64,000 nt of DNA from an uncultured Helicobacter sp. (GTDB taxonomy: Bacteria; Campylobacterota; Campylobacteria; Campylobacterales; Helicobacteraceae). The stretch spans positions 62,001-126,000 of the forward strand of contig NZ_CAJTLL010000005.1 of assembly GCF_910577135.1 (NCBI RefSeq), in the 5' to 3' direction. The notes under the pieces are model-generated. The model saw only the letters and a program-made list of their open reading frames with translations. It was not told where the DNA came from and ran no database searches. A program made the position numbers and the translations under genes. Shown one piece after another: positions 4,976-23,990 of the stretch (the stretch's first letter is position 1; each line of letters starts with the position of its first letter).

Positions 4976-5014
4976 GCGCGACTTTGAAATTTTTAAATTA
5001 CAAGAAGGATTTTT

Positions 5015-5671: not shown

Positions 5672-5716
5672 CTTCGATTTCCCTTGCCTCCTCTAAGGTA
5701 GGGGATCTATAAAGCA

Positions 5717-7528: not shown

Positions 7529-7533
7529 GCAAG

Positions 7534-8091: not shown

Positions 8092-8100
8092 GGAGCTAAG

Positions 8101-8886: not shown

Positions 8887-8922
8887 GATTCTATAAAATC
8901 ACTACATTTAAGGAAAGATAAG

Positions 8923-10675: not shown

Positions 10676-10710
10676 AAACCACCCCACCTATATAAAAAGG
10701 AGGGTATCTT

Positions 10711-11346
10711 ATGTTTGCTTTCAAATCAAAATCTTTGTTTTCTTTGGGAATCTTAGCATTACTCCCTTGCCTTATCTTTGCCACGGACTGCACTGATTCA
10801 AATTGCAAAAACTTCCGCATAGGGCTTGGAGGAGCCTATCATAATCTAGATTCTAAAGATGCGCAAATAAGCAGTGTAGGAGGATATCTCGCCTTTAGTG
10901 CACGTGGCACTCTTAAGAACCGTCTTGCTTCCGAACTTGGTGGCAAAGTAGGGTTAGGCAGTGCTACAGCCTCTGGAGCTTACTTTGAATCTGATCTATA
11001 CAGCAAAAGTAATCTTTCGCTATTCACTGATTTTTATTTTAAGATTGGGGTGAATATCGCAAGTGCAAAAATGCCTTTATTTATCAATGCTGTTTATGGC
11101 TGGGATAATTTCTCTACAAATCTAAAAAGCAAGGGAATAGGGCTTTCCCGTCATTTTGCTGGAGGAGAGTTAGAGGGCTTCCTTCCTATGGGCGACACTT
11201 CAAGTATAGAATATCTCGCGGGATTTTATACCTTTTTAAATGGCGATTATGTATTTGCTAATACCAATACTGCCTCAAAGCTACGAGGGACAAACTTTAT
11301 GGCAAAAGTCAGCGTGGGCTACACAAAGGATATTAATCCGCAATAG
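10711..11346 (+). CDS. Predicted outer-membrane beta-barrel protein, 211 aa
   Basis: The signal peptide is obvious (about residues 1-26, ending LIFATD). The rest alternates polar and hydrophobic residues with many Gly, Ser and aromatic positions, as in small outer-membrane barrels, for example FRIGLGGAYHNLDSK and FMAKVSVGYTKDI. A strong AGGAGG site precedes the ATG. The end (INPQ) lacks the usual terminal aromatic residue, so the last strand may be lost by a stop or frameshift. It lies 35 bases after the small peptide gene and may be co-transcribed with it. Confidence 0.72.
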   Translation: MFAFKSKSLFSLGILALLPCLIFATDCTDSNCKNFRIGLGGAYHNLDSKDAQISSVGGYLAFSARGTLKNRLASELGGKVGLGSATASGAYFESDLYSKSNLSLFTDFYFKIGVNIASAKMPLFINAVYGWDNFSTNLKSKGIGLSRHFAGGELEGFLPMGDTSSIEYLAGFYTFLNGDYVFANTNTASKLRGTNFMAKVSVGYTKDINPQ

Positions 11347-11837: not shown

Positions 11838-12407
11838 TTAGAGATATGCTTTTAAAAGAGGTAATTGCAATTCCTCGTAGAGTTCCTTTGCCTTTGCTTT
11901 GCCACATAGCTCCTCGACAATGCTAAGGGCAAATACCCCAGCCGTAGCCGGAGCTGCTGATGTGATAATATTGCCATTTTTTACAACAGCTTTTGTGTTT
12001 TTTGTCTTACCTTGCATATTGATTTCGCTCTCACAGCCCGGATAACAAGTAAAATCCCCTTCAAGCACCCCAGCCTTATCAAGCACGATAGGGGAAGCGC
12101 AAATAGCAGCTATGAGCTTTTGCTCTTGCTTGAAAGTGGTAAGCCAGAGCTTGATAAGCTCATTACTAGCGAGATTCTGCATACCATTATAGCCTCCAGC
12201 TAAAGCAATTGCGTCAAAATCCTCCATATCAAGCTCGGGTAGGACAGAATCTGCTTCTATCACAATATGATGTGCTCCAAGTATGCGTTTATGAGAATCT
12301 AAACTTGCCATCACTACACGCACTCCAGCTCGACGCAAAATATCGACTATACTTACAAGTTCTATCTCCTCAAATCCCCTTGCAACAGGCACTAAAACAT
12401 TTTTCAC
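11838..12407 (-). CDS. DJ-1/PfpI family protein, 189 aa
   Basis: A glutamine-amidotransferase-like fold protein. The nucleophile elbow is AICASP with C103, and the acidic partner is E14 in GFEEIE. Both are typical of the DJ-1/ThiJ/YajL branch, proposed to act in oxidative or carbonyl stress. Length is normal. It is the last chromosomal gene before the integrated element; its 5' end faces the element, separated by about 150 bases. Confidence 0.88.
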   Translation of the reverse strand: MKNVLVPVARGFEEIELVSIVDILRRAGVRVVMASLDSHKRILGAHHIVIEADSVLPELDMEDFDAIALAGGYNGMQNLASNELIKLWLTTFKQEQKLIAAICASPIVLDKAGVLEGDFTCYPGCESEINMQGKTKNTKAVVKNGNIITSAAPATAGVFALSIVEELCGKAKAKELYEELQLPLLKAYL

Positions 12408-12556: not shown

Positions 12557-12772
12557 TTATATAAAAGTTTGAAAAGTATAGTTTTCAGTAGAAGTTGTTT
12601 CAGTCTTTATTGCTTTAAGTGTAAATCTTTTGTGTAGTCTTAGTGCAGCCGAGGCGGTGCAAATGCCACGTAAGGTATCGATTTTAAGCATTTGTGTGTC
12701 GATTTTGTCTAAAAAGAGATGTTCATAACTTGACTTTAGAGCTTCAAAATCATATAATGCGCCCTGAAACAT
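12557..12772 (-). pseudogene. 5' part of the prophage rep gene, cut by integration (71 aa frame)
   Basis: An AAAGGA ribosome site precedes the ATG at 12772. The frame runs through the attachment core in the frame reading ENYTF and then ends four codons later in chromosomal DNA. The 3' part of rep at 22224-22843 reads through the other copy of the core in the same frame (also ENYTF). Joining the two at the core gives one continuous protein of about 272 residues, except for the A7 shift noted there. I infer that this piece is the N-terminus of the replication initiator and is inactive while the element is integrated. Confidence 0.78.
12565..12592. other. Left attachment site (dif-like)
   Basis: The inverted arms TGAAAA and TTTTCA surround the centre GTATAG (12576-12581). 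The left arm AAGTTTGAAAA belongs to the chromosome, and the right arm TTTTCAGTAGA belongs to the element and to the rep frame. The core is shared with 22827-22841. Arms of 11 bp around a 6-bp centre are the architecture of Xer/dif sites. Confidence 0.85.
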
Positions 12773-12812
12773 TGCTAATTCCTTTGTCTTTGTTTCCTGA
12801 TTTTTACCTACC

Positions 12813-12842
12813 CCTTGCAGGTTTTAACTTGCAAGGTTTTTT
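12813..12842 (+). terminator. Strong hairpin with T-run, upstream of the rep 5' part
   Basis: CCTTGCA and TGCAAGG pair as a 7-bp outer stem; a GTT/AAC inner stem brings it to about 11 bp with a two-base loop. Six T follow on the + strand. Read as RNA from the + strand it is a rho-independent terminator, although all genes around are on the minus strand. Its place just before the rep start also makes it a candidate part of the replication origin. Confidence 0.6.
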
Positions 12843-12879
12843 ATGCCTTGAATCTTACATTAAAAAACTTAAAAACCTT

Positions 12880-13170
12880 TTAAACCAAAAAAACCCCTAG
12901 TTTATCTCTTAGTTGCTGTGCCTGTGCGTTGTATTTGTTTGTCTGGGCTGGAGCCTGTGGGTAAGTAATGTGAGTAGTGTATGTGTAATACTTGCTTACT
13001 TTAATGCCCAAAAAGCGCCGCCAGTGCGTATGCTGCACCGAGTGTTTTATGTTGATTCTACTTTTCCATAGGTTGTAACTACTCATAGCCGCGTTATACG
13101 CTCTTATGTCTTTATCAATGTCAATCACCATTAAGAAAAAGCCAAAGTCGGGCGTGTGTGCGGTTTGCAT
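12880..13170 (-). CDS. Hypothetical prophage protein, 96 aa
   Basis: I do not recognise it. It is polar and rich in Tyr, Thr and His (YYTYTTHITYPQAPAQTNKY), with no signal or membrane segment. It starts 1 base after the stop of the holin-like gene, so it is the last gene of the late operon. It could be a lysis accessory or host-range protein, but nothing in the sequence shows this. Confidence 0.6.
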   Translation of the reverse strand: MQTAHTPDFGFFLMVIDIDKDIRAYNAAMSSYNLWKSRINIKHSVQHTHWRRFLGIKVSKYYTYTTHITYPQAPAQTNKYNAQAQQLRDKLGVFLV

Positions 13171-13171
13171 T

Positions 13172-13564
13172 CTATTTCTTTACTAGCTTAAAAATTTCTG
13201 CCGTTTTTTCAAACGTCTTGCCACCAAAGTAGAATCCATAAATAAGCATAGCGATAGTAGAGTATAAGTCCATTATGTGCAGTGGCACTTTATTAATGAA
13301 TGGTAGCACTATCACTATAACGGTATAGATAAGCATTATAATAGCTCGTATGTGGCGGTTAAGCCAAGAGCCGCTCTCTAAGTCTTTTTGATACCTTAGC
13401 GTGGCTTCACTCATTACCGCCTTGTCAAACTCTACCTCTAGTAAGGCAAATTCCTTTGTAATCTCACCCCTTATCATCTCTCGCTCGCTATCGCTAGGGA
13501 TTTTGCTTATTGCCCGCTCGGCGGTTTTAAAGATATTTCGAAATACTGATAATGCGCTACTCAT
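13172..13564 (-). CDS. Holin-like protein, 130 aa
   Basis: An N-terminal helical amphipathic region of about 60 residues is followed by SGSWLNRHIRAIIMLIYTV and two hydrophobic helices (about residues 72-87 and 95-115). A Trp-Arg pair entering a membrane hairpin is typical of the GTA/phage holin families. It sits immediately downstream of the lysozyme-like gene, as lysis genes usually do. It probably permeabilises the inner membrane at lysis. GGGGGCATAA precedes the ATG. Confidence 0.68.
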   Translation of the reverse strand: MSSALSVFRNIFKTAERAISKIPSDSEREMIRGEITKEFALLEVEFDKAVMSEATLRYQKDLESGSWLNRHIRAIIMLIYTVIVIVLPFINKVPLHIMDLYSTIAMLIYGFYFGGKTFEKTAEIFKLVKK

Positions 13565-13628
13565 TTATGCCCCCTTTTCTTTCTTTTGCGTGGGATATTT
13601 CGCATATACCCCCTGACACAATAGCCCT

Positions 13629-13790
13629 TTACCTTAACTCTACCCTTTTTATTAAGGGCTTTTTTAGCACTTTTTTACGCGCGTTGCGTTGCGCTTGTGC
13701 TTTCTTTGTATTCCTTACATTTTGCGCGTATTCCCGCGCCCTTTCGTGTTCCCCAAATAAAGCTAAAAACTCTTTTTCCCAATCTTGCAT
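13629..13790 (-). CDS. Small basic prophage protein, 53 aa
   Basis: Its ATG follows directly on the stop of the lysozyme-like gene. It starts MQDWEKEFLALFGEHERARE and ends in a strongly basic helix (NARKKVLKKPLIKRVELR). No family is recognised. It could be nucleic-acid binding or a membrane-surface helper of lysis. The tight spacing supports a real gene. Confidence 0.6.
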   Translation of the reverse strand: MQDWEKEFLALFGEHERAREYAQNVRNTKKAQAQRNARKKVLKKPLIKRVELR

Positions 13791-14495
13791 TTATACACCT
13801 TTACGCACGGCTTTGTATGCCATATAGATTAAAGCCACCTTCCACGCTAAAGCGAGAATCGCCCCTGTGGTAAAGACTATCCCCGCGCCCTTAAAAATCA
13901 TCTTTACGTCCTCTTTAGCTGCCCTTATGGGATTTTTGTATTCCACTATGCTGTTAAAAGCATACTTGCTTATACCTACGATGCTTAAGGCAAAGCCTTG
14001 CAAAGAGGGCATAGAATCAAACATTCTTACTAGCGCGTTTTGATTAAGTAGCTCGGCTTTAACCTGCTCCCACGATTTCCCCGCGTATCTTGGTGCGTTT
14101 GAGATATTTATCACGTCTGCTTCGCTTAATACGCGTTCATCGCTTAACGCCTCGCCCCCAGCTGTCTTTAACGCCTCACTTAGTTTGAATATTCCTAAGC
14201 TTGTAGTTAAAGACAAGAGACGAATTTTATTTAATTGCCCTTTAGATTCTGCCACTAGTAGGGCTTGCTTCATTCCTATAGAGTCAAACTGAAACGCCCC
14301 GTATCCAAACCCGCGCTTATTGTTGTAAATCGCCCTGCCATAGTTAGATTCTGTAATGGCTGTCTCTCTTAGCATAGCCCTTAAGTTATCTACATTTGCC
14401 CCCATAGCGAAGTTTTGCACCGCGTATTCTATGGCGGCGGTGAGCTCCGCGTCGCTATTAATACCGTAGCATTTAAATCTATCACTTTGACTCAT
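13791..14495 (-). CDS. Lysozyme-like virion muralytic enzyme with C-terminal membrane helix, 234 aa
   Basis: Likely cuts peptidoglycan during entry or release. The segment TAITESNYGRAI with a catalytic-type Glu, followed by RGFGYGAFQFDSIGMKQAL, has the ESxxG...GxGxxQ pattern of lysozyme-fold transglycosylases. Near the C-terminus a hydrophobic helix (GAGIVFTTGAILALAWKVALIYMAY) anchors it in a membrane, as for muralytic proteins of membrane-containing phages. I choose the ATG at 14495 because AGGAGG lies 7 bases before it. The frame is open to a GTG at 14564, which would add a 23-residue hydrophobic N-terminus; that stretch may instead be a separate membrane peptide. Confidence 0.72.
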   Translation of the reverse strand: MSQSDRFKCYGINSDAELTAAIEYAVQNFAMGANVDNLRAMLRETAITESNYGRAIYNNKRGFGYGAFQFDSIGMKQALLVAESKGQLNKIRLLSLTTSLGIFKLSEALKTAGGEALSDERVLSEADVINISNAPRYAGKSWEQVKAELLNQNALVRMFDSMPSLQGFALSIVGISKYAFNSIVEYKNPIRAAKEDVKMIFKGAGIVFTTGAILALAWKVALIYMAYKAVRKGV

Positions 14496-14567
14496 AATCA
14501 CACCTCCTGTAAATCCTAAAATTAAACATATTCCAAACATTCCAAATACCACAAAAAGCCCCACGTC

Positions 14568-14930
14568 TTAGCTCTCATAGATGATAAAGTCGGCTTGCGC
14601 TAGCCAATGCGTGCTTGAGCTTACATTTCTTCTTGTCATAAACCATATTATTAAGCCTGTATTTTCCTCTCTATCCCTGCTTATCAAATTATCCAAGATA
14701 AAATCACCGCTAAACTCTAGCGTTTCGTTTGAATCCTTAAAAGTGGCAAGGTTGTTATAGTTCGCCCCGTAAGCCGTGCCTAGGCTATAACCGCCCCTAT
14801 GTAAATAGGCGGTAAACTGGTAAAAGTCCCCTGATAAAAATTGCCCCCAGTGGAGGCTATGCGCACTTTTGCCGCCCCGCCTTTGGAATCTTGCAAGTTG
14901 GTTATATGCCCTCTGTCCATAGATAGACAT
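14568..14930 (-). CDS. Hypothetical prophage structural protein, 120 aa
   Basis: No signal peptide or membrane helix. It is rich in aromatics, Gly and Ser (LHWGQFLSGDFYQFTAYLHRGGYSLG), consistent with a beta-sheet virion protein such as a vertex or spike component. The start overlaps the previous gene by 29 bases. Assignment to the virion rests on position between membrane-protein genes and the lysozyme-like gene. Confidence 0.6.
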   Translation of the reverse strand: MSIYGQRAYNQLARFQRRGGKSAHSLHWGQFLSGDFYQFTAYLHRGGYSLGTAYGANYNNLATFKDSNETLEFSGDFILDNLISRDREENTGLIIWFMTRRNVSSSTHWLAQADFIIYES

Positions 14931-15201
14931 TTTGCACTTGTGCGGGCACGCCCTCGCGGGTATATACGTCTGTAATTCTAAAGCCCGTATTGCGATTATC
15001 TACCAAAAAGGCGTCCTTACGCTCGGGATTGAGTGAGATATACACCTTTACATCCACGGGGTAGTCAAGGAGCAAAAAATACGCGCACGCCCCTAAATTG
15101 ACTTGATTATATTCCCTATCGCAAGGCAATTCTAAACTTTGCAATGGATTTTGTTGCTTTGCAAAGCTTGTATTTTGTTTGCTAAAAAGTAAGTTACTCA
15201 T
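14902..15201 (-). CDS. Hypothetical prophage protein, 99 aa
   Basis: A soluble, beta-rich protein (VKVYISLNPERKDAFLVDNRNTGFRITDVY) without membrane segments. A GGGGCGTAA ribosome site precedes the ATG, which overlaps the stop of the upstream gene. Together with the next gene it may form a spike or penton-like pair. No family recognised. Confidence 0.6.
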   Translation of the reverse strand: MSNLLFSKQNTSFAKQQNPLQSLELPCDREYNQVNLGACAYFLLLDYPVDVKVYISLNPERKDAFLVDNRNTGFRITDVYTREGVPAQVQNVYLWTEGI

Positions 15202-15578
15202 TTACGCCCCTTTATTTTAAAAACTATAAGTAAAACTCCTAATAAAACACACCACATATAAGGCGTTTTAAACATATTACTTATTTGAATGCCTAAGCTG
15301 CAGTTGCCCTTTGTGGCTTCTATAACCGCCTCTTTATTCTGTGCGGTAATCCCTAAAATCGCGCTAAAAGCATTATTTGTAATACCACTGATAGTATTTC
15401 CTATGGCGTGTAAATCCTCTCCCATAAGCCCTAATTTCGTGCTTGTATCAAGTATCGCGCCGCTTAAGTCTAGGTTTATCCCATTATCTACATAATAGGA
15501 ATTATCCCCTATTGTAGCCGCTGAGCTGCTTTGACTGCTGTCTGTTTGACTTAAGTCTAATCCAAAATTACTTGCCAT
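15198..15578 (-). CDS. Prophage protein with C-terminal membrane helix, 126 aa
   Basis: The N-terminal 95 residues are Ser/Asp/Asn rich and helical. A single hydrophobic helix (MWCVLLGVLLIVF) and a basic end (KIKGRK) follow. This N-out, tail-anchored layout recurs in three neighbouring genes and fits proteins of an internal virion membrane. GGAGGGATTCT precedes the ATG. Confidence 0.65.
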   Translation of the reverse strand: MASNFGLDLSQTDSSQSSSAATIGDNSYYVDNGINLDLSGAILDTSTKLGLMGEDLHAIGNTISGITNNAFSAILGITAQNKEAVIEATKGNCSLGIQISNMFKTPYMWCVLLGVLLIVFKIKGRK

Positions 15579-15606
15579 AGAATCCCTCCAACATTACAAA
15601 TAATGC

Positions 15607-16029
15607 CTATTTGCGCTTACCTAACATAAGCGCTGCCATTACACCGATTAAGGCTAGAGGTATTAACGGGCTTGATAAGCCGCCCCCTTGAGATATGCCC
15701 CCGCCTATGCTATCGCTCCCGCCGCTTAAGCCTGTGGAGGCACTGCCTGCGCTGCCACTCCCTCCACCTACGCTCGCACTGAATCCTAACTCATCTCTTT
15801 GTGAGGTCGTGTTTGAGTTTGTGGCGGTATTATGCGGGCTGGTAGTAGTGCTACCGCCTCCGAAACCTCCGTTTGCCTCATTATATACGCTCCCACTGCT
15901 CCCTATGTTAAAGGTATTGCCCCCGCCAAAGAGATTTGAGAGGTTGCTCCCCGTTACCGCGCCATATGACGTGTTTTGATAGAGATTAGTTGTGTTGTTT
16001 GTAGTTTTTTTGCTTGACCACCACCCCAT
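15607..16029 (-). CDS. Gly/Ser-rich prophage protein with C-terminal membrane helix, 140 aa
   Basis: Low-complexity Gly, Ser, Thr and Asn sequence fills residues 10-115 (GFGGGSTTTS, VGGGSGSAGSAS). A hydrophobic helix (SSPLIPLALIGVMAALML) and GKRK end it. The flexible Gly-rich body on a membrane anchor suggests a virion adsorption or membrane-linking protein. No family recognised; composition alone is weak evidence. Confidence 0.62.
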   Translation of the reverse strand: MGWWSSKKTTNNTTNLYQNTSYGAVTGSNLSNLFGGGNTFNIGSSGSVYNEANGGFGGGSTTTSPHNTATNSNTTSQRDELGFSASVGGGSGSAGSASTGLSGGSDSIGGGISQGGGLSSPLIPLALIGVMAALMLGKRK

Positions 16030-16035
16030 AGTGCC

Positions 16036-16266
16036 CTACTTACGATTAAAGATAAAAAGCGCCGTGCCAATAGCAAGTATGACGCCACCAATAAGCATTA
16101 GCTTTGCATTGCTTAAGTTGATTTTGTTTTGCGTCTCGGTCGCGTGCCAGTTTGCATTAGCTTGTTGCCTTGCTATGTCGTTTGCTGTCTGGTTACTTGA
16201 GTAGCTATTGTAGATATTTACGCCCTTATCTACCAAACTACCGATAGAATCAAAATTCCAATCCAT
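16036..16266 (-). CDS. Small prophage membrane protein, 76 aa
   Basis: A helical N-terminal part (Asn/Ala/Gln rich, residues 1-50) is followed by one hydrophobic helix (AKLMLIGGVILAIGTALFIF) and NRK. It is the first gene after the capsid candidate. The layout resembles minor membrane proteins of PRD1/PM2-type virions. A GGGGGATTCT site precedes the ATG. Confidence 0.63.
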   Translation of the reverse strand: MDWNFDSIGSLVDKGVNIYNSYSSNQTANDIARQQANANWHATETQNKINLSNAKLMLIGGVILAIGTALFIFNRK

Positions 16267-16325
16267 AGAATCCCCCTTATTAGATTAACCCATTTTGCAC
16301 GGCTCTGTGTTATGCCGTGTCTTTT

Positions 16326-17534
16326 TTAGCCTTGTGCTTGTGCAGTACGGTTTGCCTCTGCTAGTGCCACTTGTTGTAAAAGCTGTGGTAAATCCTCGTA
16401 GTTTTGATATACCTCTACTAGGATTTCCTCCGTCGCACCATTAAGCACGCTTGCAAATTTATTGTTAAAGTCGATAGTCAAGCGCATTTGATTGAAACTC
16501 ATAAATACTAAAGAGTTGTTCATATCGCCAAAGTAGTTACTCGCTATATGATACACTCCATAGAATACGCCTTTACCATCTGGGCTGTCGCTTAGCTCTT
16601 TGCCAAATAGCATTTGCGAGAGGCTAAACTTTTGTAGCATTTCATTTTTAAGAATTTCTGGCGTGGTATCCACTAGGATATTATTTCCATCTGCAATTTT
16701 AATCCTGTCTATCATACCATCTAGTCGCTCGTTGGTTTGAGAGTTTCTAAATACTATGATAAAGTCCTTTATCCATAGGTTGGGGGTAAGTTCAATATAT
16801 TGCCCCTTACCGCCACCGCTAAAGCCCTTTGAGATAACCTTTTGCACATAGAGATTACCCATTTGAGACAAGAATTGTTCTTGTCTGTTTGCTTGAATCT
16901 CGCTTGTTATCCAATACTTGCTACTGCAATTGACATAGGTATTAGCAAGGGATAGAGTAGCCGCGCCCTCATTATCATCACTTGCCCCCTCTGCTCTTGC
17001 TAGCATAGATTTGAAACATACTTCTTGCGGCTCGTTCTTATAGGTAAGTTGGAAGCTATTAAAGAGCCAAGTGCAGATGTTTGTTTGTGTAGCCCCTATC
17101 TGGTCAAACATTGCAAAAGGTATAGTGATTACGAGCTTAAACTCTGCTACCCCTTGAGTTTGCCCCGCTTTTATGCTTACACTCTCTGGGATTTCCATAT
17201 ATTCAAACTTACCGCGATTTTGCAAGGTGTTAATAAATCTAAAAATAGCAAGTGAAGTAACGTTTTTTACCTCGGTGTTACCATTTAGCTTTATTTGCAC
17301 GTTGCTAAAGAGATTGTAAATGTGGTCGTCTGCATAATTGATTGTGTATGCTGTGTCGCTTGCTGGGGCAGTAGTTACCTTAGCTACGATTTGCCCTGTG
17401 ATGGTTAAAATCATTGCCAATGCGCGCTTATTGCGATACCGCCCTAAGTCTATAACCACATTTCCATTTGGTTGCCACTGCGCCCCTGTGCCGTCTGGTT
17501 CGATATTCTTACGTCCGTTAAATACGCCTGCCAT
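16326..17534 (-). CDS. Major capsid protein candidate, double jelly-roll type, 402 aa
   Basis: The start MAGVFNGR at 17534 has AAGGAGG 6 bases upstream, so 16 residues of the longer frame are dropped. The protein is almost all predicted beta-strand in two similar halves. The first half has NLFSNVQIKLNGNTEVKNVT near residue 75, matching the LFxxIxxIxLxxNG feature of PM2/PRD1-like capsid proteins. The second ends with a long aliphatic strand region (SLVFMSFNQMRLTIDFNNK) typical of the second barrel. It has no Cys-rich, coiled-coil or HK97 features and follows the ATPase gene after two membrane peptides. Structure prediction would be decisive. Confidence 0.72.
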   Translation of the reverse strand: MAGVFNGRKNIEPDGTGAQWQPNGNVVIDLGRYRNKRALAMILTITGQIVAKVTTAPASDTAYTINYADDHIYNLFSNVQIKLNGNTEVKNVTSLAIFRFINTLQNRGKFEYMEIPESVSIKAGQTQGVAEFKLVITIPFAMFDQIGATQTNICTWLFNSFQLTYKNEPQEVCFKSMLARAEGASDDNEGAATLSLANTYVNCSSKYWITSEIQANRQEQFLSQMGNLYVQKVISKGFSGGGKGQYIELTPNLWIKDFIIVFRNSQTNERLDGMIDRIKIADGNNILVDTTPEILKNEMLQKFSLSQMLFGKELSDSPDGKGVFYGVYHIASNYFGDMNNSLVFMSFNQMRLTIDFNNKFASVLNGATEEILVEVYQNYEDLPQLLQQVALAEANRTAQAQG

Positions 17535-17544
17535 AGAATCCTCC

Positions 17545-17634
17545 TTATAGATTTGGTTTTTTGAGTTTTGAGAGTTTAGCAAATACGATACTTGCTACCA
17601 ATGCCGTAACGACTGTTTCTAAAATCGCTTTCAT
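17545..17634 (-). CDS. Prophage membrane peptide, 29 aa
   Basis: An AAAGGGGGAG site lies 4 bases before the ATG. The peptide is a single hydrophobic helix (MKAILETVVTALVASIVFAK) with a basic tail (LSKLKKPNL). It stops 10 bases before the capsid start. Such short single-helix proteins are common in membrane-containing phages and are usually missed by gene callers. Confidence 0.6.
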   Translation of the reverse strand: MKAILETVVTALVASIVFAKLSKLKKPNL

Positions 17635-17647
17635 ATACTCCCCCTTT

Positions 17648-17761
17648 TAGCTAATTTGTGGAATCTTAGTCTTGATAAGATTAAACAATACGATACCGAC
17701 TACTACGCCGATAATTGCCTTTAACGTTTAGCCCCGCTTTGATTGTGAATTTTAAGCTCAT
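17648..17761 (-). pseudogene. Prophage membrane peptide, apparently frameshifted
   Basis: The ATG at 17761 overlaps the ATPase stop (ATGA), a normal coupled start, and reads MSLKFTIKAGLNVK. The frame then leaves a clear membrane helix (AIIGVVVGIVLFNLIK) that is open in another frame down to the stop at 17648. Removing one G at about 17717 joins the two into a 36-37 residue peptide. I infer a single-base insertion or a sequencing error. Confidence 0.5.
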
Positions 17762-18381
17762 TGTAGCCCCTTTTCTAGTTGATGTATTAAGGTTTGAGAT
17801 AACCTTATGCGAGTAGCCTTGTTATCCCCTAAAGCTACCCGCATAAAATCACCTCGCGGCAAGTATTGTGAATCCTCGGCGATGTCTTTATCTAACGTCT
17901 TGCGTATATACTCATAATCCGTATAACTTTTCCCTATGCGCCCTATGTAGAATACGTCCGTTTGAGACACTATCGCCTTTGGTGTATCTTGCAAACGCCT
18001 TGCCATCACGATTAAGTCTATCTCTCTATGCCGACCGTAGTTGATAAGCTTATAGAGTTCTAACTCTTTGTCTAGCATATTCTTATAGTAGAAGTCTATT
18101 TCATCTATCACTATGCAAATATTTTCCATCGTGGCTATGCTACCTAAAAGCTCCTCTAAGGCGTTAAAATCATTCAAGTAATAGATATAGCTTACCCCGC
18201 TATAAAAATCCTCTTGTAACTCGCTTTGATTGACTTTATCTCTAAAGTGTGTAGGGATAGAGTGCATAATGGGGCTTATAAAGATAACGGGCTTACTTTG
18301 TGCTAAACCTAACGCCGTGGCTAGCATAGTTTTACCGCTACCCTTATTTGCAAAGATGGTAGTAATTGTGTTTTGTTTCAA
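17758..18381 (-). CDS. Genome-packaging-type ATPase (FtsK/HerA superfamily), 207 aa
   Basis: Walker A is ANKGSGKT at residues 11-18 and Walker B is ICIVIDE at 88-94. A downstream DLIVMARRLQDTPKAIVSQTDVFYIGRI segment matches the sensor/arginine region of small viral packaging ATPases and of the related Zot proteins. It starts at TTG, overlapping the previous stop, with AAAGGGGG 10 bases upstream. It has no membrane helix, unlike most Zot proteins. Its place before the capsid gene is the order seen in PM2/PRD1-like phages, so a packaging role is the best inference. Confidence 0.75.
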   Translation of the reverse strand: MKQNTITTIFANKGSGKTMLATALGLAQSKPVIFISPIMHSIPTHFRDKVNQSELQEDFYSGVSYIYYLNDFNALEELLGSIATMENICIVIDEIDFYYKNMLDKELELYKLINYGRHREIDLIVMARRLQDTPKAIVSQTDVFYIGRIGKSYTDYEYIRKTLDKDIAEDSQYLPRGDFMRVALGDNKATRIRLSQTLIHQLEKGLQ

Positions 18382-18467
18382 AACAAGCCCCCTTTACATA
18401 TCTCTATGACAAGCAAGCTTAAGCAAAAGGCTATGCTAAAAAGTGAAACTACTTTCCAATTAATCAT
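18378..18467 (-). CDS. Prophage membrane peptide, 29 aa
   Basis: The ATG overlaps the stop of the upstream gene (ATGA) and its own stop overlaps the TTG start of the ATPase. It is one hydrophobic helix (WKVVSLFSIAFCLSLLVIEI) with a short KGGLF end. Coupling on both sides supports translation. Confidence 0.58.
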   Translation of the reverse strand: MINWKVVSLFSIAFCLSLLVIEICKGGLF

Positions 18468-19000
18468 TTAGAATCCCCCTTGTTTTGATTATCTTTACGC
18501 GGCTCTTTGTTACGCTTTAGTTTTTCAAAGCCAATTGCAGAATCTATTATCATTGCAATACTTGAGAGTATAAGCAGGATTAGCCCTACCTTGCCCCCCG
18601 CCCCTACGCTTATATACTCGGCTAGCGCGCTTTGGTTACTTTCTACCATTACCTTAATGCCCGGGTTAAGCGGTTCATTTACCCGCGCCTTTTTGAGAGC
18701 CTCGCACGTTGAGACAAAGCCTTTGACTATCTCTTTGCTGGATTCTATGGTTTTGCGGCTTAGCTCGTCTTTTTGCGGGTCGCGCTTTTCTCTTAAGATA
18801 AAGTCTAACTCTTGAGAACTTAGCCGTTCAAGTGTGCTAAGGCTTCTTTGAGAGTAGCCTAAGTCGTGGATTTTTTGCGCTTTTGCAAGGTTAGAATCCC
18901 CGCTTTTACCCCCGCTTGAATCTCCGCTCGGGATTCCGCCCGTGATACCGCTTTTAGATTCCGCTTGCGGATTCTGTGGCTTTTTGTGCGTTAGTTTCAT
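18464..19000 (-). CDS. Prophage membrane protein, 178 aa
   Basis: Residues 1-40 are Pro/Ser/Gly rich, residues 45-125 are polar and helical (YSQRSLSTLERLSSQELDFILREKRD), and a single membrane helix lies near 133-153 (GGKVGLILLILSSIAMIIDSA). A basic tail follows. AAGGAAAAGAAA precedes the ATG. No family is recognised. It may scaffold or link membrane and capsid. Confidence 0.65.
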   Translation of the reverse strand: MKLTHKKPQNPQAESKSGITGGIPSGDSSGGKSGDSNLAKAQKIHDLGYSQRSLSTLERLSSQELDFILREKRDPQKDELSRKTIESSKEIVKGFVSTCEALKKARVNEPLNPGIKVMVESNQSALAEYISVGAGGKVGLILLILSSIAMIIDSAIGFEKLKRNKEPRKDNQNKGDSK

Positions 19001-19106
19001 TTTTCTTTTCCTTGTTTAAGAGATAGAATCCATAAACTGCAATTCCTACCCCCACCATTCCCACTAAAGCTACTACACTTTGCAAAAGTGAGGGCGTCTT
19101 ATCCAT
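18954..19106 (-). CDS. Small prophage membrane protein, 50 aa
   Basis: Reads MDKTPSLLQSVVALVGMVGV followed by GIAVYGFYLL and a polar tail. A single membrane helix is evident. It overlaps the end of the 90-residue upstream gene and the start of the 178-residue downstream gene in other frames. The helix makes it more likely real than a chance frame, but there is no clear ribosome site. Confidence 0.45.
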   Translation of the reverse strand: MDKTPSLLQSVVALVGMVGVGIAVYGFYLLNKEKKNETNAQKATESASGI

Positions 19107-19345
19107 AAAATCAAGATTTTTATAGCTTCTTTGTGCGCTTTTTTATCGATTTTTTCCTGTTTGCGCCCCGCATAGAGCTTTTTTTGCAGCCTTGCTTCGA
19201 CTTGAGATTCTATTTTGTTTATAAAATCATTATCATATTGCACGGGCTCACGCGCGCTTTCTAACGGCTCCTGTGGCGTTAGAGTAATGTTTCCCTCGCT
19301 TGCTGGCTCTACGTTAGCATTTTGTGCATTTTGTGTGCTATCCAT
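19073..19345 (-). CDS. Hypothetical prophage protein, 90 aa
   Basis: The N-terminal half is acidic and polar, and residues 45-75 form a charged, possibly coiled-coil helix (FINKIESQVEARLQKKLYAG). The last dozen residues (ILILWIRRPHFCKV) differ in character and overlap the next gene. No family recognised. Confidence 0.55.
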   Translation of the reverse strand: MDSTQNAQNANVEPASEGNITLTPQEPLESAREPVQYDNDFINKIESQVEARLQKKLYAGRKQEKIDKKAHKEAIKILILWIRRPHFCKV

Positions 19346-19399
19346 TAGTAAAGCTCACTTTTTGGGATTTTGGGCGCGTTTTGTGCCTTTTTGATACTC

Positions 19400-19537
19400 T
19401 CACCCTTGAGAGAGAAAAAGCTGTGCTAATTCCTGCTTACTTTTGCGGTTTAGCTCACTGGCTTTGCGTTCATTACTTGTAAGCAATTCCACTAAATGCG
19501 CTTTAGTGTATGTGTCCATTATAGAATCTAGGTTCAT
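19400..19537 (-). CDS. Small prophage protein, 45 aa, first gene of the late operon
   Basis: Reads MNLDSIMDTYTKAHLVELLT and continues as a helical, charged protein ending FLSQG. The TYTKAHLVELLTSN and KSKQELAQLF parts look like a small helix-extended-helix (SAP/Rho-N-like) motif, which would suggest DNA binding; this is only a resemblance. It is the first gene after the 394-base spacer with a promoter, with GAGGGG upstream. Confidence 0.55.
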   Translation of the reverse strand: MNLDSIMDTYTKAHLVELLTSNERKASELNRKSKQELAQLFLSQG

Positions 19538-19931
19538 TTGTTACCCCTCGTTTTAAATTTCAAGGGGCATTCTAACGCAAAGCAAAAAGTGCCCTAAAAA
19601 GCGTCATATTGGATTATAAGCGCGATTATGTGATAATATGAGATTTTGCGTTTTTCGTGGTTTTAAGTTTGTTTGTGTATTTGTGGATTGTTTAAAAGTT
19701 CATTTTGATAAAAGCACTTAAGGGATTATTTGAGATAAACCCCTTAAGTTTAGCCTCTAAAACTTGCCTTTTAAGAGTTAAATAACAATCGCTAAAAAGT
19801 AAAATTTTAAACTCTATGTTACTTAATGACACAAATCTATTAAAATTTGCAAGGCAATGGGTATTATAAAGCCCCTATAAACATATGCTTGAATTTTGCT
19901 CTCCGTCCATTGTACGCCTCCTTTACGCGGT
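19538..19931. other. Prophage spacer with 9-bp inverted repeat (19716-19749)
   Basis: These 394 bases separate the early and late genes. ACTTAAGGG at 19716-19724 and CCCTTAAGT at 19741-19749 form a perfect 9-bp inverted repeat around 16 bases. It lacks a T-run on the minus strand, so it is not a clear terminator. Lying just downstream of the serine recombinase gene, it could be a recombination or operator site. No gene is seen here. Confidence 0.55.
19613..19618 (-). promoter_or_regulatory. Candidate promoter (-10 TATAAT) of the prophage late operon
   Basis: On the minus strand a perfect TATAAT precedes the first gene of the structural block by about 75 bases. No clear -35 is seen, as is usual in Helicobacter. 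It lies in the only long spacer of the element. Confidence 0.5.
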
Positions 19932-20499
19932 TTATGGTGTGCTCTTTTGCCCTTGTAGCCATTTGTAAAGCTTCGTGCGTGAGATTTTCATTAGCTTTGC
20001 CGTTTTAGTAATGCTACCACCGCTGGCAAAGAATGCCTCATCAAACGCCGCTTTATCTACATTGATAAACGGGCGCCCGCTTTTGAGTGTGCCCTTTGCC
20101 TTTTGTATCGCTATGCCCTCTAGTTGCCGCTCTTTGATATGCGCTAGATCCATTTGCGCCACGTATCCTAGAATGCTAATAAGCATATCCGTAACCACGC
20201 CCTTGCTGGTATCTAATCCTTGAGAGAGAAAGCGCACAATCACGCCCTTATCCTTGCAAATGTTGAGAATCTCGCATAGGTCCCTATGATTACGCGCTAA
20301 TCTATCTATGCTGTGACAAATGATAGTATCGCCCTCGCGCACATAGTCTAGCATTGCGTTAAGCTGGGGGGCGGTTTTCTGCCTTGCTACCGCTTAACTT
20401 TTCTATAAATACCTTGTTGCACTGCTCCTGTTTGATAAGCTCTAGCTGCCTTGCCTCGTTTTGTAGTATCGTGCTTACTCTTACATATGCTACTATCAT
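19932..20499 (-). pseudogene. Serine recombinase (resolvase/invertase), frameshifted
   Basis: Starting at ATG 20499 with GGAGG upstream, the frame reads MIVAYVRVST with the catalytic Ser (S9), then runs into a stop at a C6 run (G6 at 20366-20371 on the + strand). Removing one C continues straight into QLNAMLDYVREGDTII, then HSIDRLARN, the long E-helix (ILGYVAQMDLAHIKERQLEG) and a C-terminal helix-turn-helix (SITKTAKLMKISRTKLYKWL). Intact length would be about 188 residues, normal for Hin/Tn3-type recombinases. The downstream 140-residue frame alone lacks the catalytic Ser. It may be slippage-switched, inactivated or a sequencing error. Confidence 0.78.
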
Positions 20500-20821
20500 A
20501 GAATCCTCCTTACTCTACTACTATGAATCGGACGGGCTCCTAGCTCTGCGTTACTGACGCACTCATCTAAAAACGCCTCTAAATGCCCGTGCTCTAACTG
20601 CGCGCGCTCTATCTCACCCTCGGCGATGTCGAATGTTTGCGGTTCGCCCTCGTTATCGCGCTCCCATAGCAGCGCATAGAGTTTGTAATCGCATTTGATA
20701 GAATCTACATTGCTTATTTGCAAGTAAAAATCCGCCTTTATATCCTCGCGCGCCTTGTAGAGTAAAGGCTCGTGCGTGCCCGCTTGCCCTGTATGCCATT
20801 TACATATTGTGCTATGTTCAT
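20496..20821 (-). pseudogene. Hypothetical prophage gene, apparently frameshifted (about 108 aa)
   Basis: The ATG at 20821 overlaps the stop of the previous gene, with AGGAGG upstream, and reads MNIAQYVNGIQG. From about 20788 a second frame continues naturally (GQAGTHEPLLYKAREDIKAD) and stays open to the stop at 20496, which overlaps the recombinase ATG. Adding one G to the run at about 20788 fuses them. The second frame on its own could only start at a TTG (20723). The C-terminal part is acidic, ending PIHSSRVRRIL. No family recognised. Confidence 0.55.
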
Positions 20822-20940
20822 TTTAGCCCTCCTGTTATTTCTAAAAATGCCATTGTAAAGAGCATTCCTAAGATAAAGTTCAAATTGAATACATTATCTA
20901 TCCACCACCGCCAATTTTTCTTATTGTTATTCTTTTTCAT
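20818..20940 (-). CDS. Small prophage membrane protein, 40 aa
   Basis: GGAGG lies 5 bases before the ATG. The protein has a basic, Asn/Lys/Trp-rich start (MKKNNNKKNWRWWIDN) and one hydrophobic helix (FILGMLFTMAFLEI), ending GGLK. Its stop overlaps the next ATG. It is probably an inner-membrane peptide; function unknown. Confidence 0.55.
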   Translation of the reverse strand: MKKNNNKKNWRWWIDNVFNLNFILGMLFTMAFLEITGGLK

Positions 20941-21015
20941 AAAGCCTCCATTGTAAATTTATCTCTAAATTTTATCCTTTTGTAAATCAATATGCAAGCA
21001 CAACTTTTTTTTACT

Positions 21016-21174
21016 TCAAATGTTACACTTGCACGATGTACATTTAACTACACATTTATTTACACTCGGTTCCTTACGCTTTTTATGTAATGCCTTAAGT
21101 TCATTATTACGTTGTCTGCCTCTACCTCGTCGTGTTTTTTTGTAGATTTTTGCTTCTATAAAGTGATAATCCAT
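21016..21174 (-). CDS. Small basic Cys-cluster protein, 52 aa
   Basis: The ATG at 21174 is preceded by GGAG at 8 bases; an upstream in-frame ATG at 21186 lacks this. The protein is very basic (IYKKTRRGRGRQRNNELK) and ends in a four-cysteine cluster, CVVKCTSCKC, which could bind zinc. A nucleic-acid-binding regulator is the simplest guess. Confidence 0.52.
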   Translation of the reverse strand: MDYHFIEAKIYKKTRRGRGRQRNNELKALHKKRKEPSVNKCVVKCTSCKCNI

Positions 21175-21252
21175 AAAGCACTCCATATCCCGCGCGATAA
21201 GCCTACCTGTTTTTTTTTTGCTATGTGTTTATTAGCTATTGTTTGCCTCCTT

Positions 21253-21672
21253 TTATTTCAATTCTAAAGCGCTTTGCGTTTGTGCTAGCTTTTTGCGCTC
21301 TCTAAAGCGCGCTTGCCTTATGCGATTATCTATCCTTTTTTGCTGTGCCTTTTGCTCGGCTTTGTCTTTAGCCCTTGCCTCACGCGCCTTTTGGGCTTCT
21401 AACTCTTTTGCCCTTTGTGCCTTAGCTTGAAGCGCGGCGCGTATGTCCGCTTCACATCGCTTCCTTTGTGCATAGAGACGCGCGTTATACTTGCTAAAGT
21501 TGTTATTATCCCTATATGCCCTTAAGTTTCGCACGATTTCATAGATATACTGCCTTTTAGCGATATAGAGATGTGCGTTATTTTGCATTTCATAGGGGTA
21601 TTGCGTGTTTCGCTCGTTATACCATTCCTTTAATGTCTGTGTGTAAAGCTCTATGTTATTTGCTGCACTCAT
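21253..21672 (-). CDS. Hypothetical prophage protein with basic coiled coil, 139 aa
   Basis: Residues 1-70 are Tyr/Asn rich and helical (YTQTLKEWYNERNTQYPYEM). Residues 80-130 are a continuous Ala/Glu/Lys/Arg/Gln helix that looks like a coiled coil (KAREARAKDKAEQKAQQKRI). GGAGG precedes the ATG, and the start overlaps the upstream gene by 17 bases. Perhaps DNA binding or structural; no family recognised. Confidence 0.6.
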   Translation of the reverse strand: MSAANNIELYTQTLKEWYNERNTQYPYEMQNNAHLYIAKRQYIYEIVRNLRAYRDNNNFSKYNARLYAQRKRCEADIRAALQAKAQRAKELEAQKAREARAKDKAEQKAQQKRIDNRIRQARFRERKKLAQTQSALELK

Positions 21673-21949
21673 TGTTTGCCTCCTTAAATTCTGTTATGTG
21701 TGCTGCTGTGGCTGTGATTGCCTTGCCTTGCTGCTCTATGTCGGGTATTTCTATGATGTCTATATCGCATAAGCTTAAGCTAGCGGCTTTTACCAGTGCC
21801 TTAGCCTCTGAATCTGCTTTGATTATCATCACATAGAATCCTGCGTCTGTGATTTCTTGAAGGCTACAAGTTAAAGTCTCTAGTCTCTCACTCTGTGCTA
21901 ATACCTTTAAGTGGCTATTGCCAATTTTTACGATTAAGTAAAACTTCAT
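21656..21949 (-). CDS. Hypothetical prophage protein, 97 aa
   Basis: Its ATG overlaps the stop of the previous gene (ATGA). It begins MKFYLIVKIGNSHLKVLAQ and has an alternating strand-helix pattern of a small soluble alpha/beta protein. No motif is recognised. Position in the early block suggests a replication or regulatory accessory. Confidence 0.6.
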   Translation of the reverse strand: MKFYLIVKIGNSHLKVLAQSERLETLTCSLQEITDAGFYVMIIKADSEAKALVKAASLSLCDIDIIEIPDIEQQGKAITATAAHITEFKEANNECSK

Positions 21950-22170
21950 TTCAAGTCCTTTCGTGTGCTACTGCTAAGCGCTGCATAGGTAAAGAGTGTT
22001 TGCTGTGCCGCCTCTCTCTTAAGCTGTGCGAGTTCCTCTTTATCGATTATCGCATATTGATTACCCGTGGCATTGCCTACGATTTCGCTTATATACTTTA
22101 AGGGGATAAAGCCTTGCGTCCCTGTCGTGTAGCGCACTACAAGGTTAGTGTCTTTGTATGGATTGTGCAT
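21946..22170 (-). CDS. Hypothetical prophage protein, 74 aa
   Basis: AAAGGAG precedes the ATG. The protein starts MHNPYKDTNLVVRYTTGTQG and contains KYISEIVGNATGNQYAIIDK then a helical tail. It follows rep after 53 bases and is coupled to the next gene. A small regulator is possible but not shown by the sequence. Confidence 0.6.
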   Translation of the reverse strand: MHNPYKDTNLVVRYTTGTQGFIPLKYISEIVGNATGNQYAIIDKEELAQLKREAAQQTLFTYAALSSSTRKDLK

Positions 22171-22223
22171 AACTGCTCCTTTGTTTTAAGATTTCACATT
22201 CTAGTTTGTAAGGTCGCTTACCC

Positions 22224-22843
22224 TTAAGGGCTTGCTCCCTTAGCTAGAATGTGTTTTGCAAAATGTCTCATTGATACTTTTTGCTTTTTGTTGATAGAGA
22301 GATACTTAAAGAATTCTTTTGTAGAATATTTCAAGTATTGAGAGTCACGTTTAAGATTCTTAGATATTTTCTTATTATGGGGGCTTGATGGCTTACGTTT
22401 TCCTTGCTGTGTGGCTTTTGGTCGGTTTAGTGTTGTATGGTTTTTACTTAATTTTAAGGTTGCTTCATAACGTAATGTGCCATATTGTGTGGGGCATTTC
22501 ATATTCCTTTGTCTATCTTTTATCGCTTTATTATAGATGCAAAGCTGCCCCGCCTCGCCAAAGTCTAGGTAGTTTGTCCCCTTATACTGCTTTGTTTTGT
22601 GTGCTTTTTGTGTTTTTAGTAGCTGTGTGGTGTCTAAGCACACGTCCGCTTGTGTAAAATTGAAACTTTTTTTGTAAGTAAATATTTGAGTAGCTCTTTA
22701 TGCTGCTTTTGCTGTCTCTGCGTTAGCTTGTAGTTTTGTGCTAAAGCATAGATTTCAATGCTAAATCTATTTGCTTTTGGGATTTTTCGTAACTTTAATA
22801 CACCCCTCCCCACCCGAAAAACATTGAAAGTATAGTTTTCAAA
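22224..22843 (-). pseudogene. 3' part of prophage rep (rolling-circle-type initiator), with A7 frame change
   Basis: From the attachment core (ENYTF frame) the reading frame runs NVFRVGRGVLKLRKIPKANR and on to an A7 run (T7 at 22667-22673, + strand). There the frame must shift by -1, exactly at A AAA AAA G, to continue as SFNFTQADVCLDTTQ, then TNYLDFGEAGQLCIYNKAIKD and YGTLRYEATLKL to the stop at 22224. The YNKAIK followed by LRYEATLK resembles the YxK/RxE motif pair of gene II/X-type phage Rep proteins. The first part of the gene is at 12557-12772. The A7 run is either a programmed slippery site or a one-base deletion. Confidence 0.7.
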
Positions 22844-22846
22844 TTG
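22819..22846. other. Right attachment site (dif-like), 68 bp upstream of xerH
   Basis: Centre GTATAG at 22830-22835 with left arm AAACATTGAAA (element side, inside rep) and right arm TTTTCAAATTG (chromosome side). Combining the chromosomal arms of both ends gives AAGTTTGAAAA, GTATAG, TTTTCAAATTG, whose arms match as inverted repeats at 9 of 11 positions. That is what an intact difH site should look like. Element-side arms are less symmetric. Confidence 0.85.
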
Positions 22847-22913: not shown

Positions 22914-23990
22914 ATGAAATATCCATTGCGTTATAAAGATGACTTTTCTGCAAATATGCTGTTTTGGATTACGCGCTTCATACGTTACAAGCTCACTACA
23001 TTATCCAATCATCAAGTTTATGATAAAGAGCGCATTTTAGAAGCGATAAATGCCCTAAACAACGATGAAATAAACTCTTTAGAATCTTTAGAATCCCTCT
23101 GCAAAAGCGTAAGAAAAGCAGGAATGATAGGGATTAATACCTACGCCACTCCCCTACTCAAGCTCTATACATTCCTCGCACAAAGTAATATTCACACAAT
23201 GGAAGAAATCGATGAAGAGGTGCTAAGCGATTTTTTGAGCGTGGAGACAAGCTTCCTTTCAAATGCGAGTAAAAAAAATTATAGAATTGCACTCATTGGG
23301 CTATTTGGCTATATTGATAAACAAAATGAGAACGAAGGCAAATCTTATGTGTATAACATCACACTTAAAATCGGTGCCCTACAAGGCAAAAGTGGGCAAA
23401 AGTTGCCCGCATATTTAAATCAAAATGAACTTGAGCGGTTTTTACAAGGCATTGACGAAATGCCCTTTGGCGAGAAAATCGCTGCACGCAATAAACTCAT
23501 CATCAAACTCATTGTCTATACGGGCATACGCGTGAGCGAGGCGCTCAACCTCCGCCGCAAGGATATATTCCCTATGCAAGACTGCTATCTCGTGCAGATT
23601 CGCGGCAAGGGCAATAAGCCTAGAGTAGCGATGATACGCAAAAGCCATATAGAGAATCTGCTCGGCGTATGGCTCACGCAACGTGAAGCTTTTGCCCCGC
23701 AGCACGATTTGCTCTTTTGCAATGCTAAAGGCAAGGCGCTCACACAAAGCTATATCTATAAAAATGTAGAAAATATACTGATGTCAGTGGGTCTCCGCAA
23801 GGAAAAGAATGGCGCGCATATGCTGCGACATTCTTTTGCTACACTACTCTATCAGCAAAAGCACGATTTGGTAATGGTGCAAGAAGCTCTAGGACACGCA
23901 GATTTGAATACAAGCCGTATTTACACGCATTTTGATAAAGAAAGACTGCAAGAAGTCGTCAATGCAATGGATAGTATTGGGAAATCTTAG
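22914..23990 (+). CDS. xerH: Tyrosine recombinase XerH, 358 aa
   Basis: The single-recombinase Xer of epsilonproteobacteria, which resolves chromosome dimers at difH. Catalytic residues are visible: R206 (TGIRVSEA), H302 and R305 (HMLRHSF), H328 (LGHADLNT) and Y337 (RIYTHF). The N-terminal core-binding domain and length fit XerH. The gene is chromosomal, lying just outside the right attachment site. I infer that it also integrates and excises the prophage, whose own genes include no tyrosine recombinase. Confidence 0.93.
   Translation: MKYPLRYKDDFSANMLFWITRFIRYKLTTLSNHQVYDKERILEAINALNNDEINSLESLESLCKSVRKAGMIGINTYATPLLKLYTFLAQSNIHTMEEIDEEVLSDFLSVETSFLSNASKKNYRIALIGLFGYIDKQNENEGKSYVYNITLKIGALQGKSGQKLPAYLNQNELERFLQGIDEMPFGEKIAARNKLIIKLIVYTGIRVSEALNLRRKDIFPMQDCYLVQIRGKGNKPRVAMIRKSHIENLLGVWLTQREAFAPQHDLLFCNAKGKALTQSYIYKNVENILMSVGLRKEKNGAHMLRHSFATLLYQQKHDLVMVQEALGHADLNTSRIYTHFDKERLQEVVNAMDSIGKS

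What the first reader, a model, noticed from the sequence alone, without database searches (positions are those of the whole stretch)
12573..22841. Compact tailless-phage-like prophage with a double jelly-roll capsid candidate in a Helicobacter chromosome
Seen: about 10.25 kb, almost all genes on one strand, an FtsK/HerA-type ATPase directly before a 402-residue all-beta protein with an LFSNVQIKLNG feature, at least eight small single-helix membrane proteins, a membrane-anchored lysozyme-like protein, a holin-like protein and a rolling-circle-type Rep; no terminase, portal or tail gene. Established: PM2 (Corticoviridae) has a circular dsDNA genome of about 10 kb, a double jelly-roll capsid protein, an internal membrane, a packaging ATPase and a rolling-circle Rep. 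Inference: this is a PM2/PRD1-like prophage. I do not recall a described one of this gene set in Helicobacter.
Basis: partly seen in the sequence, partly recalled or inferred. Interest (0 to 1): 0.95.

Follow-up and report, generated by a model that had tools for sequence, protein, structure and literature searches.

The report
Tailless-virus prophages hidden at Helicobacter dif
This Helicobacter chromosome holds a partly broken 10-kb element, likely the genome of a tailless, PM2-like virus, inserted at the site where the cell normally resolves chromosome dimers; related elements sit at the same kind of site in other bacteria of the same phylum, so such viruses likely use the host's own Xer enzyme to come and go.

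Summary
The observation largely holds: one strand, 10.25 kb, ATPase then capsid candidate, many small membrane proteins. The left copy matches the XerH site difH at 18 of 19 positions; the right one (13 of 19) lies 72 bp before xerH. Four sibling genomes show the empty site.

The ATPase profile matches the STIV packaging NTPase (1e-15) and the PM2 P9 family, not Zot. The capsid protein has no direct database hit. Profiles link it to ~318-residue proteins at the same place in other Campylobacterota elements (E 1.5e-11), which match PM2 coat protein P2; one sister element carries a full P2.

All 8 elements with both flanks in hand lie between dif-type repeats. In the window and its nearest relative the att site appears to split one gene, likely the replication initiator. 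A rolling-circle Rep is not supported. The window copy is defective. Double jelly-roll prophages at dif are known in Vibrio and Flavobacterium; I found no report of them in Campylobacterota, at difH, or with such a split gene.

The parts
12568..12594 (-). left att site, difH-type (18 of 19 consensus positions; shared core 12576-12587)
   Evidence: difH consensus from PMC2731167
12557..12772 (-). 71-aa ORF reading into the left att: likely N-terminal piece of the att-split gene (putative replication initiator)
   Evidence: 50% identity over 48 residues to the single 245-aa gene of element L037, E 2e-6; codon phase at the core equals that of the right piece
12880..13170 (-). 96-aa protein, unknown
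   Evidence: open in both copies
13172..13564 (-). holin-like membrane protein, 130 aa
   Evidence: PHROG 3427 holin 6.4e-11; same family in L043
13629..13790 (-). 53-aa protein, unknown
   Evidence: open
13791..14564 (-). lysozyme-like protein with N-terminal membrane segment, here lacking its C-terminal part and fused to the next membrane protein
   Evidence: G001: separate 195-aa and 136-aa ORFs; PHROG 3108 (unknown function) 7.7e-20; window matches residues 1-122 only; conserved E-T-x-x-x-E motif in 7 elements
14568..15201 (-). spike-position gene, broken (299 aa in G001; residues 119-206 unmatched here)
   Evidence: position only, no family match
15198..15578 (-). 126-aa membrane protein
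   Evidence: hydrophobic segment
15607..16029 (-). glycine-rich membrane protein, 140 aa
16036..16266 (-). 76-aa single-helix membrane protein
16326..17534 (-). major capsid protein, likely double jelly-roll (PM2 P2-related), 402 aa
   Evidence: 15 homologues; profile match to A3 MCPs 1.5e-11, which match PM2 P2; no direct Pfam hit; structure not modelled
17545..17634 (-). 29-aa membrane peptide between ATPase and MCP (position of PM2 P7)
17758..18381 (-). P9/B204-type packaging ATPase, 207 aa
   Evidence: PDB 4kfr 1.3e-8, 1e-15 with wider profile; PHROG 2666 1.3e-15
18464..19000 (-). 178-aa protein with C-terminal membrane segment, before the ATPase as in the sister elements
18954..19345 (-). 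130-aa membrane protein, interrupted here
19932..20499 (-). serine resolvase/invertase-like gene, interrupted here (191 aa in G001)
   Evidence: Pfam Resolvase 1e-19 and 2.3e-7 for the two pieces
21253..21672 (-). 139-aa basic protein, unknown
22224..22813 (-). C-terminal piece of the att-split gene (196 aa in G001; interrupted once more here)
   Evidence: 31% identity over 134 residues between the G001 piece and the L037 gene, E 1e-12
22826..22846 (-). right att site (core 22830-22841; difH score 13 of 19)
22914..23990 (+). host XerH recombinase, not part of the element
   Evidence: tyrosine-recombinase models XerC, XerD, XerS matched below their cut-offs, as fits XerH; beside dif in 8 of 8 sibling loci

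Best explanation
The region is a defective prophage, likely of a tailless, membrane-containing virus with a predicted double jelly-roll capsid and a P9/B204-type packaging ATPase, sitting at the chromosome's difH site next to xerH, where the host XerH recombinase likely inserted it. Shown: difH-type core at both ends (strong left, weak right); empty dif-xerH sites in siblings; dif-type repeats at the ends of all 8 related elements with both flanks in hand; ATPase family; same gene order; damage to this copy. Inferred: the host XerH, activated at division by FtsK, swaps the element's dif-like site with the chromosomal one. In the circle the gene split by the att site would be whole and, as likely initiator, start replication. 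Capsids with an inner membrane would then be built from the MCP, spike and small membrane proteins, filled by the ATPase and released by the holin and lysozyme-like protein. Integration would thus itself switch replication off.
For: Capsid: 15 homologues. A1 vs A3 E 1.5e-11 against a best of 0.0015 in 100 column shuffles. A3 vs 7 PM2-type MCPs E 4.7e-6 against a best of 0.015 in 100 shuffles and 0.039 in 82 other ORFs. L042's MCP passes the Pfam P2_C cut-off (28.5 vs 25 bits). The L041 element carries a full P2 (P2_N 1.1e-30, P2_C 4.8e-25; PDB 9t9v 1.8e-25, 2vvf 6.3e-10). ATPase; sister ATPases find tectivirus phiG2 and STIV2 by tblastn. Integration. The site lies about 0.52 of the genome from dnaA in G001, as a terminus should. 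Split gene. The longest contig of a metagenome cluster is 9.3-10.5 kb, the size of a free genome, for 5 of 15 MCP clusters and 9 of 23 ATPase clusters.
Against: No structure model (six refusals). The window's own MCP has no Pfam, NCBIfam, PDB or significant PHROG match, and its profile A1 alone does not match PM2 MCPs (E 0.13). L041's P2 alone matches neither A1 nor A3 (0.13, 0.16), and adding it to the PM2 profile did not strengthen the link (1e-5 for A3, 0.0012 for the pooled set). No match to FLiP or phiCjT23 MCPs. The window ATPase itself finds no phage record by tblastn. The right att is a poor difH (13 of 19). The split gene has no family match; the homologue search found only two proteins, of 196 and 198 aa, both beginning at the right-hand piece, which also fits a gene that simply starts there. 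This copy is broken, and no particle, circle or recombination was observed. L037 has no good difH-like site (best 12 of 14 core positions).
Confidence: 0.85

Rival explanations
1. A single-stranded DNA virus of the FLiP/phiCjT23 kind, which also sits at dif, with a capsid and Rep of that group.
For: phiCjT23-like prophages in Flavobacterium carry dif sites at both ends and have DJR capsids (PMC9719478, passages); similar size.
Against: FLiP-group genomes lack a packaging ATPase (PMC5894146, passages), whereas this family was found by its ATPase; no MCP match to FLiP or phiCjT23; no Rep match.
Confidence: 0.05
2. A filamentous (Zot/pI-bearing) prophage or its relic, as commonly found at dif.
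For: Several filamentous phages integrate at dif (PMC5357621, passages); small genome.
Against: No Zot family among the ATPase hits; best matches are STIV B204 and PM2 P9.
Confidence: 0.02
3. An integrative element or satellite that uses XerH but makes no virion of its own, the 402-residue protein serving another purpose.
For: No virion seen; the copy is broken; many proteins have no family match.
Against: Gene order kept over several families of Campylobacterota with ATPase, MCP and lysozyme-like genes, and a bona fide PM2 P2 in the L041 element.
Confidence: 0.07

Closest known systems
Corticovirus PM2 and PM2-like prophages (Corticoviridae; AF155037)
   Same: About 10 kb; P9-type ATPase, then a small membrane peptide, then the MCP, then small proteins; P2-related capsid through sister elements.
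   Different: MCP 402 aa against 269 and not directly matched; no P12-type Rep; host phylum; XerH/difH site.
Vibrio phage NO16 and tailless Vibrio prophages
   Same: Double jelly-roll temperate viruses (NO16 10.6 kb), some inserted at dif, thought to use host XerCD (PMC9966536, PMC11630473; passages).
   Different: XerCD and classical dif; here difH beside xerH in 6 of 8 elements. The passages read mention no att-split replication gene.
FLiP / phiCjT23 (Finnlakeviridae and kin)
   Same: Small circular-genome DJR viruses; phiCjT23-like prophages flanked by dif.
   Different: ssDNA; the FLiP group lacks an ATPase; unrelated MCP by profile.
Tectiviruses (Lysinibacillus phage phiG2) and STIV
   Same: ATPase - small ORF - next protein of MCP size in phiG2; ATPase homology; N-terminal MCP profile match to phiG2 2.3e-4 against a best of 0.018 in 60 shuffles.
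   Different: phiG2 is 13.8 kb, linear and polymerase-bearing; STIV is archaeal.
IMEX (elements exploiting Xer), e.g. CTXphi-type and the gonococcal island
   Same: dif-like att sites; host recombinase used, no own tyrosine integrase seen here (PMC5357621, passages).
   Different: The examples in the passages read are in Vibrio, Neisseria and Enterobacter; none is a difH/XerH element.

Membership tests
Corticoviridae / PM2 group | Double jelly-roll MCP of the P2 type | tested here: inconclusive
   No direct Pfam P2 hit for the window MCP; linked in two profile steps; full P2 only in sister element L041
Corticoviridae / PM2 group | P9-type packaging ATPase | tested here: met
   PHROG 2666 1.3e-15, the same family that PM2 P9 hits at 2.6e-50; hhalign 2.7e-14 to PM2-group ATPases
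Corticoviridae / PM2 group | Gene order ATPase - small membrane peptide - MCP | tested here: met
Corticoviridae / PM2 group | P12-type rolling-circle Rep | tested here: not met
   hhalign no match, no better than shuffles
Corticoviridae / PM2 group | Icosahedral particle with inner membrane and circular dsDNA | not testable with these tools
   needs particles
Double jelly-roll viruses (Varidnaviria) | Two jelly rolls in the predicted MCP fold | not testable with these tools
Double jelly-roll viruses (Varidnaviria) | A32/B204/P9-type packaging ATPase | tested here: met
   PDB 4kfr/4r2h STIV B204, 1e-15 and 8e-15; next are HerA chains at 4e-6
Finnlakeviridae (FLiP group) | FLiP-type MCP and no packaging ATPase | tested here: not met
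Filamentous phages (Zot/pI) | Zot-type ATPase | tested here: not met
   no Zot model among hits
IMEX (Xer-exploiting elements) | dif-type att sites at both ends in the terminus, no own tyrosine integrase | tested here: met
   (right att weak, 13 of 19); no tyrosine integrase recognised in the element's ORFs; a serine resolvase-like gene is present in the window, G001 and L037
IMEX (Xer-exploiting elements) | Integration and excision by host Xer shown | not testable with these tools
   needs a recombination assay

The most novel reading that the evidence does not exclude
A family of Campylobacterota tailless viruses lives by hijacking the single-recombinase XerH/difH system (and classical dif in kin that have it). 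In its Helicobacter branch the attachment site lies inside the replication gene, so integration itself cuts replication off and XerH excision, tied to FtsK and cell division, switches it back on: an integration-dependent replication switch with no repressor needed.
Probability: 0.5. Interest if true: 0.85.

Novelty: new variant of a known kind. Interest (0 to 1): 0.72.

Why it matters
It would add a tailless-virus lineage to a phylum that includes Helicobacter and Campylobacter. A recent survey of Helicobacter prophages curated on genes such as integrase, portal and terminase and classed delimited regions under 20 kb as incomplete (PMC11840440, passages), so such elements would be missed or set aside. 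It would make the single-recombinase XerH system a virus entry point and offers a simple, testable lysogeny switch: a gene split by the attachment site. It also puts PM2-type MCPs and a much diverged MCP into one set of gene orders.

Tried and rejected
Direct family searches for the window MCP (Pfam, PHROGs, NCBIfam, PDB) gave nothing significant (2 of 16 A1 members touch Pfam Capsid_N at best 0.022). Relatives of the window MCP or ATPase were absent from viral contigs, GTDB contigs, phage records and, for the ATPase, plasmids; the element's DNA had no near match in phages or plasmids. Wider ATPase scans of viral contigs gave one weak locus, L050. Two scans with single sister MCPs found nothing, nor did one sister MCP in phage records. 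FLiP and phiCjT23 as the closest kin: rejected. Zot: rejected. Rolling-circle Rep: tested by hhalign, no match. The serine resolvase as integrase: set aside, because elements in which I saw no such gene have the same dif-type ends. Weak ATPase hits were dropped from my counts as unrelated: G091 and G258, 16 of 24 genomes (E 3e-9 to 7e-4, mostly within long ORFs), and G050 and G031.
Full report
Observation. The ORFs described are there. Short repeats are common by chance here (one search lists at least 60 families of 16 bases or more), so the repeat alone proves little. What counts is that the left copy matches the published difH consensus (PMC2731167; passages; see also PMC3325230) at 18 of 19 positions, against a next best of 15 in the whole 64 kb. 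The right copy scores 13 of 19 and lies 72 bp upstream of xerH (22914-23990).

The site. Ten same-genus genomes besides G001 were scanned for the motif. In 8 of them the exact dif motif was found, and in 8 of these 8 loci dif lies shortly before xerH. In 4 of the 8 the gene that flanks the element on the other side here (11838-12407) is present too, so the site is empty. G008 had no match and G002 no exact one. In the nearest genome held, G001, dnaA is at 1,145,124 and the element at 50.7-61.3 kb of 2,090,509 bp, about half a genome away, as expected for the terminus.

The nearest copy. G001 carries the same element, 96-99% identical in the aligned pieces. Its genes are mostly whole. Against it, 9 of the 24 genes checked are interrupted or shortened in the window: the right piece of the split gene, the 82-, 103-, 64- and 130-aa genes, the resolvase, a 37-aa membrane ORF, the spike-position gene (residues 119-206 unmatched) and the lysozyme-like gene. 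The MCP, the ATPase, the holin-like gene and the 178-, 76-, 126-, 96- and 53-aa genes are open. The window copy is therefore defective.

Relatives. The MCP has 15 homologues in 5.8 billion proteins and occurs in 1 of 99 relatives' genomes, G001. The ATPase profiles found 12 of 397 genomes of the phylum, 24 of 398 of the order at any strength (8 strong and full-length) and 5 of 121 of the family (3 strong). Reading the loci shows one gene order: membrane protein, ~190-aa protein with a C-terminal membrane segment, ATPase, MCP, small and glycine-rich proteins, spike-position gene, lysozyme-like protein. The first gene differs: in L040 and L038 it has an HTH_36 domain (4.5e-10, 2.6e-11), L040 also a RepL match (1.8e-4).

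Dif in all. Over I count 12 genomes with convincing hits. Both flanks are in hand in 8 (G001, G375, G095, G293, G397, G531, G229, G225), and all 8 lie between dif-type repeats, 9.2-10.6 kb apart. One copy is weaker in several: 15 of 19 in G531, under 16 in G375 (shared stretch 14 bp), 13 in the window. Six lie beside xerH at difH (in G095 and G293 xerH was recognised by eye). Two (G229, G225) have a 22-bp repeat that resembles classical dif by eye. The other four could not be judged: G368, G516 and G265 are cut or fragmentary, and G045 (L037) is a 9,219-bp contig without a good difH-like site; its two ends both lie in the same short repeat, which fits a circle broken by assembly (by eye; one search found no exact end overlap).

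ATPase. Profile A2 matches STIV packaging NTPase B204 at 1.3e-8, the wider profile A4 at 1e-15, ahead of HerA chains at 4e-6. PM2 P9 itself falls in PHROG 2666 (2.6e-50), the family that the window ATPase hits at 1.3e-15; the label 'terminase' is therefore misleading. hhalign to PM2-group ATPases gives 2.7e-14 and to a tectivirus ATPase 3.9e-10. No Zot family appears among its hits.

Capsid. The window MCP family (A1) matches the ~318-residue MCPs of sister elements (A3) at E 1.5e-11, robust to leaving out any one member (3e-13 to 4e-8) against a best of 0.0015 in 100 shuffles. A3 matches seven PM2-type MCPs at 4.7e-6 against a best of 0.015 in 100 shuffles and 0.039 among 82 other ORFs. Without the two members that hit Pfam P2_C it still gives 4e-5. 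L042's MCP passes the P2_C cut-off; L040's is just below (23.5 against 25 bits). The L041 element, with the same ATPase family, carries a full P2. Against this: A1 alone does not match PM2 (0.13), single PM2-type sequences match A3 only weakly (best 0.0019), a plain PM2 HMM reaches the sister MCPs at 0.017 at best, and a PM2 profile with L041 added is no better. Two jelly rolls in the 402-residue protein are thus likely but not modelled.

The split gene. A 71-aa ORF reads into the left att, and a 196-aa ORF (in G001) reads out of the right one, on the same strand. They match different parts of one 245-aa gene of L037: residues 8-52 (50%, E 2e-6) and 80-206 (31%, E 1e-12). The two ORFs have the same codon phase at the shared core. 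In the circle the gene would therefore likely be continuous. Against this, a homologue search with the 196-aa piece found only two proteins, 196 and 198 aa, beginning at the same place; they may be integrated copies too, or the gene may simply start there. It has no family match; calling it the replication initiator rests on its position. A parallel, recalled and not read here, is mycobacteriophages whose attachment site lies inside the repressor gene.

Print. No paper in the held library joins 'double jelly-roll' with Campylobacterota (0) or corticovir- and prophage with Sulfurimonas (0). One joins it with Helicobacter and prophage, a review seen only in the listing. Searches showed no such element by title and abstract start; most lists were capped (20 of 26, 8 of 8, 20 of 116, 10 of 496, 15 of 396). 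The 2018 survey of DJR viruses has no occurrence of Helicobacter, Campylobacter, Sulfurimonas or Arcobacter in its main text; its extra files, and older work on PM2-like prophages that it cites, were not seen. The library holds open-licence papers only.

Noticed in passing
L041 (G225), 4513-10838: A Campylobacterota element with the same ATPase family but a true PM2 P2 capsid protein (Pfam P2_N 1.1e-30), which suggests capsid-gene exchange within the group.
   Followed up: partly
L045 (G375 contig 52), 4932-6422: An ATPase fragment of this family lies next to what looks like a repeat array (a repeated WNRHKGCIEI reading), perhaps CRISPR beside a prophage remnant.
   Followed up: no
L037 (G045 contig 33), ends and 540-720: Short tandem repeats occur at both contig ends and inside; the contig may be a free circular virus genome or phage-plasmid.
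   Followed up: partly
L050, 1660-3487: An IMG/VR contig with a B204-like ATPase followed by a 320-aa protein that matches the pooled MCP profile at 3.1e-5; it may be an STIV-like virus.
   Followed up: partly
window 19932-20499: A serine resolvase/invertase-like gene is carried by the window and G001 elements and L037, but was not seen in the other sister elements read; its role is unclear.
   Followed up: no
window 24805-25171: The tmRNA gene lies shortly downstream of xerH (tag ANNANYAPAYAKVA).
   Followed up: no
PHROG 28223: An uncharacterised phage family of 337 positions matches the sister MCPs (L040 6.6e-13, L042 4.9e-13) and may be a double jelly-roll capsid family; tblastn with L042's MCP found no phage record.
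   Followed up: partly
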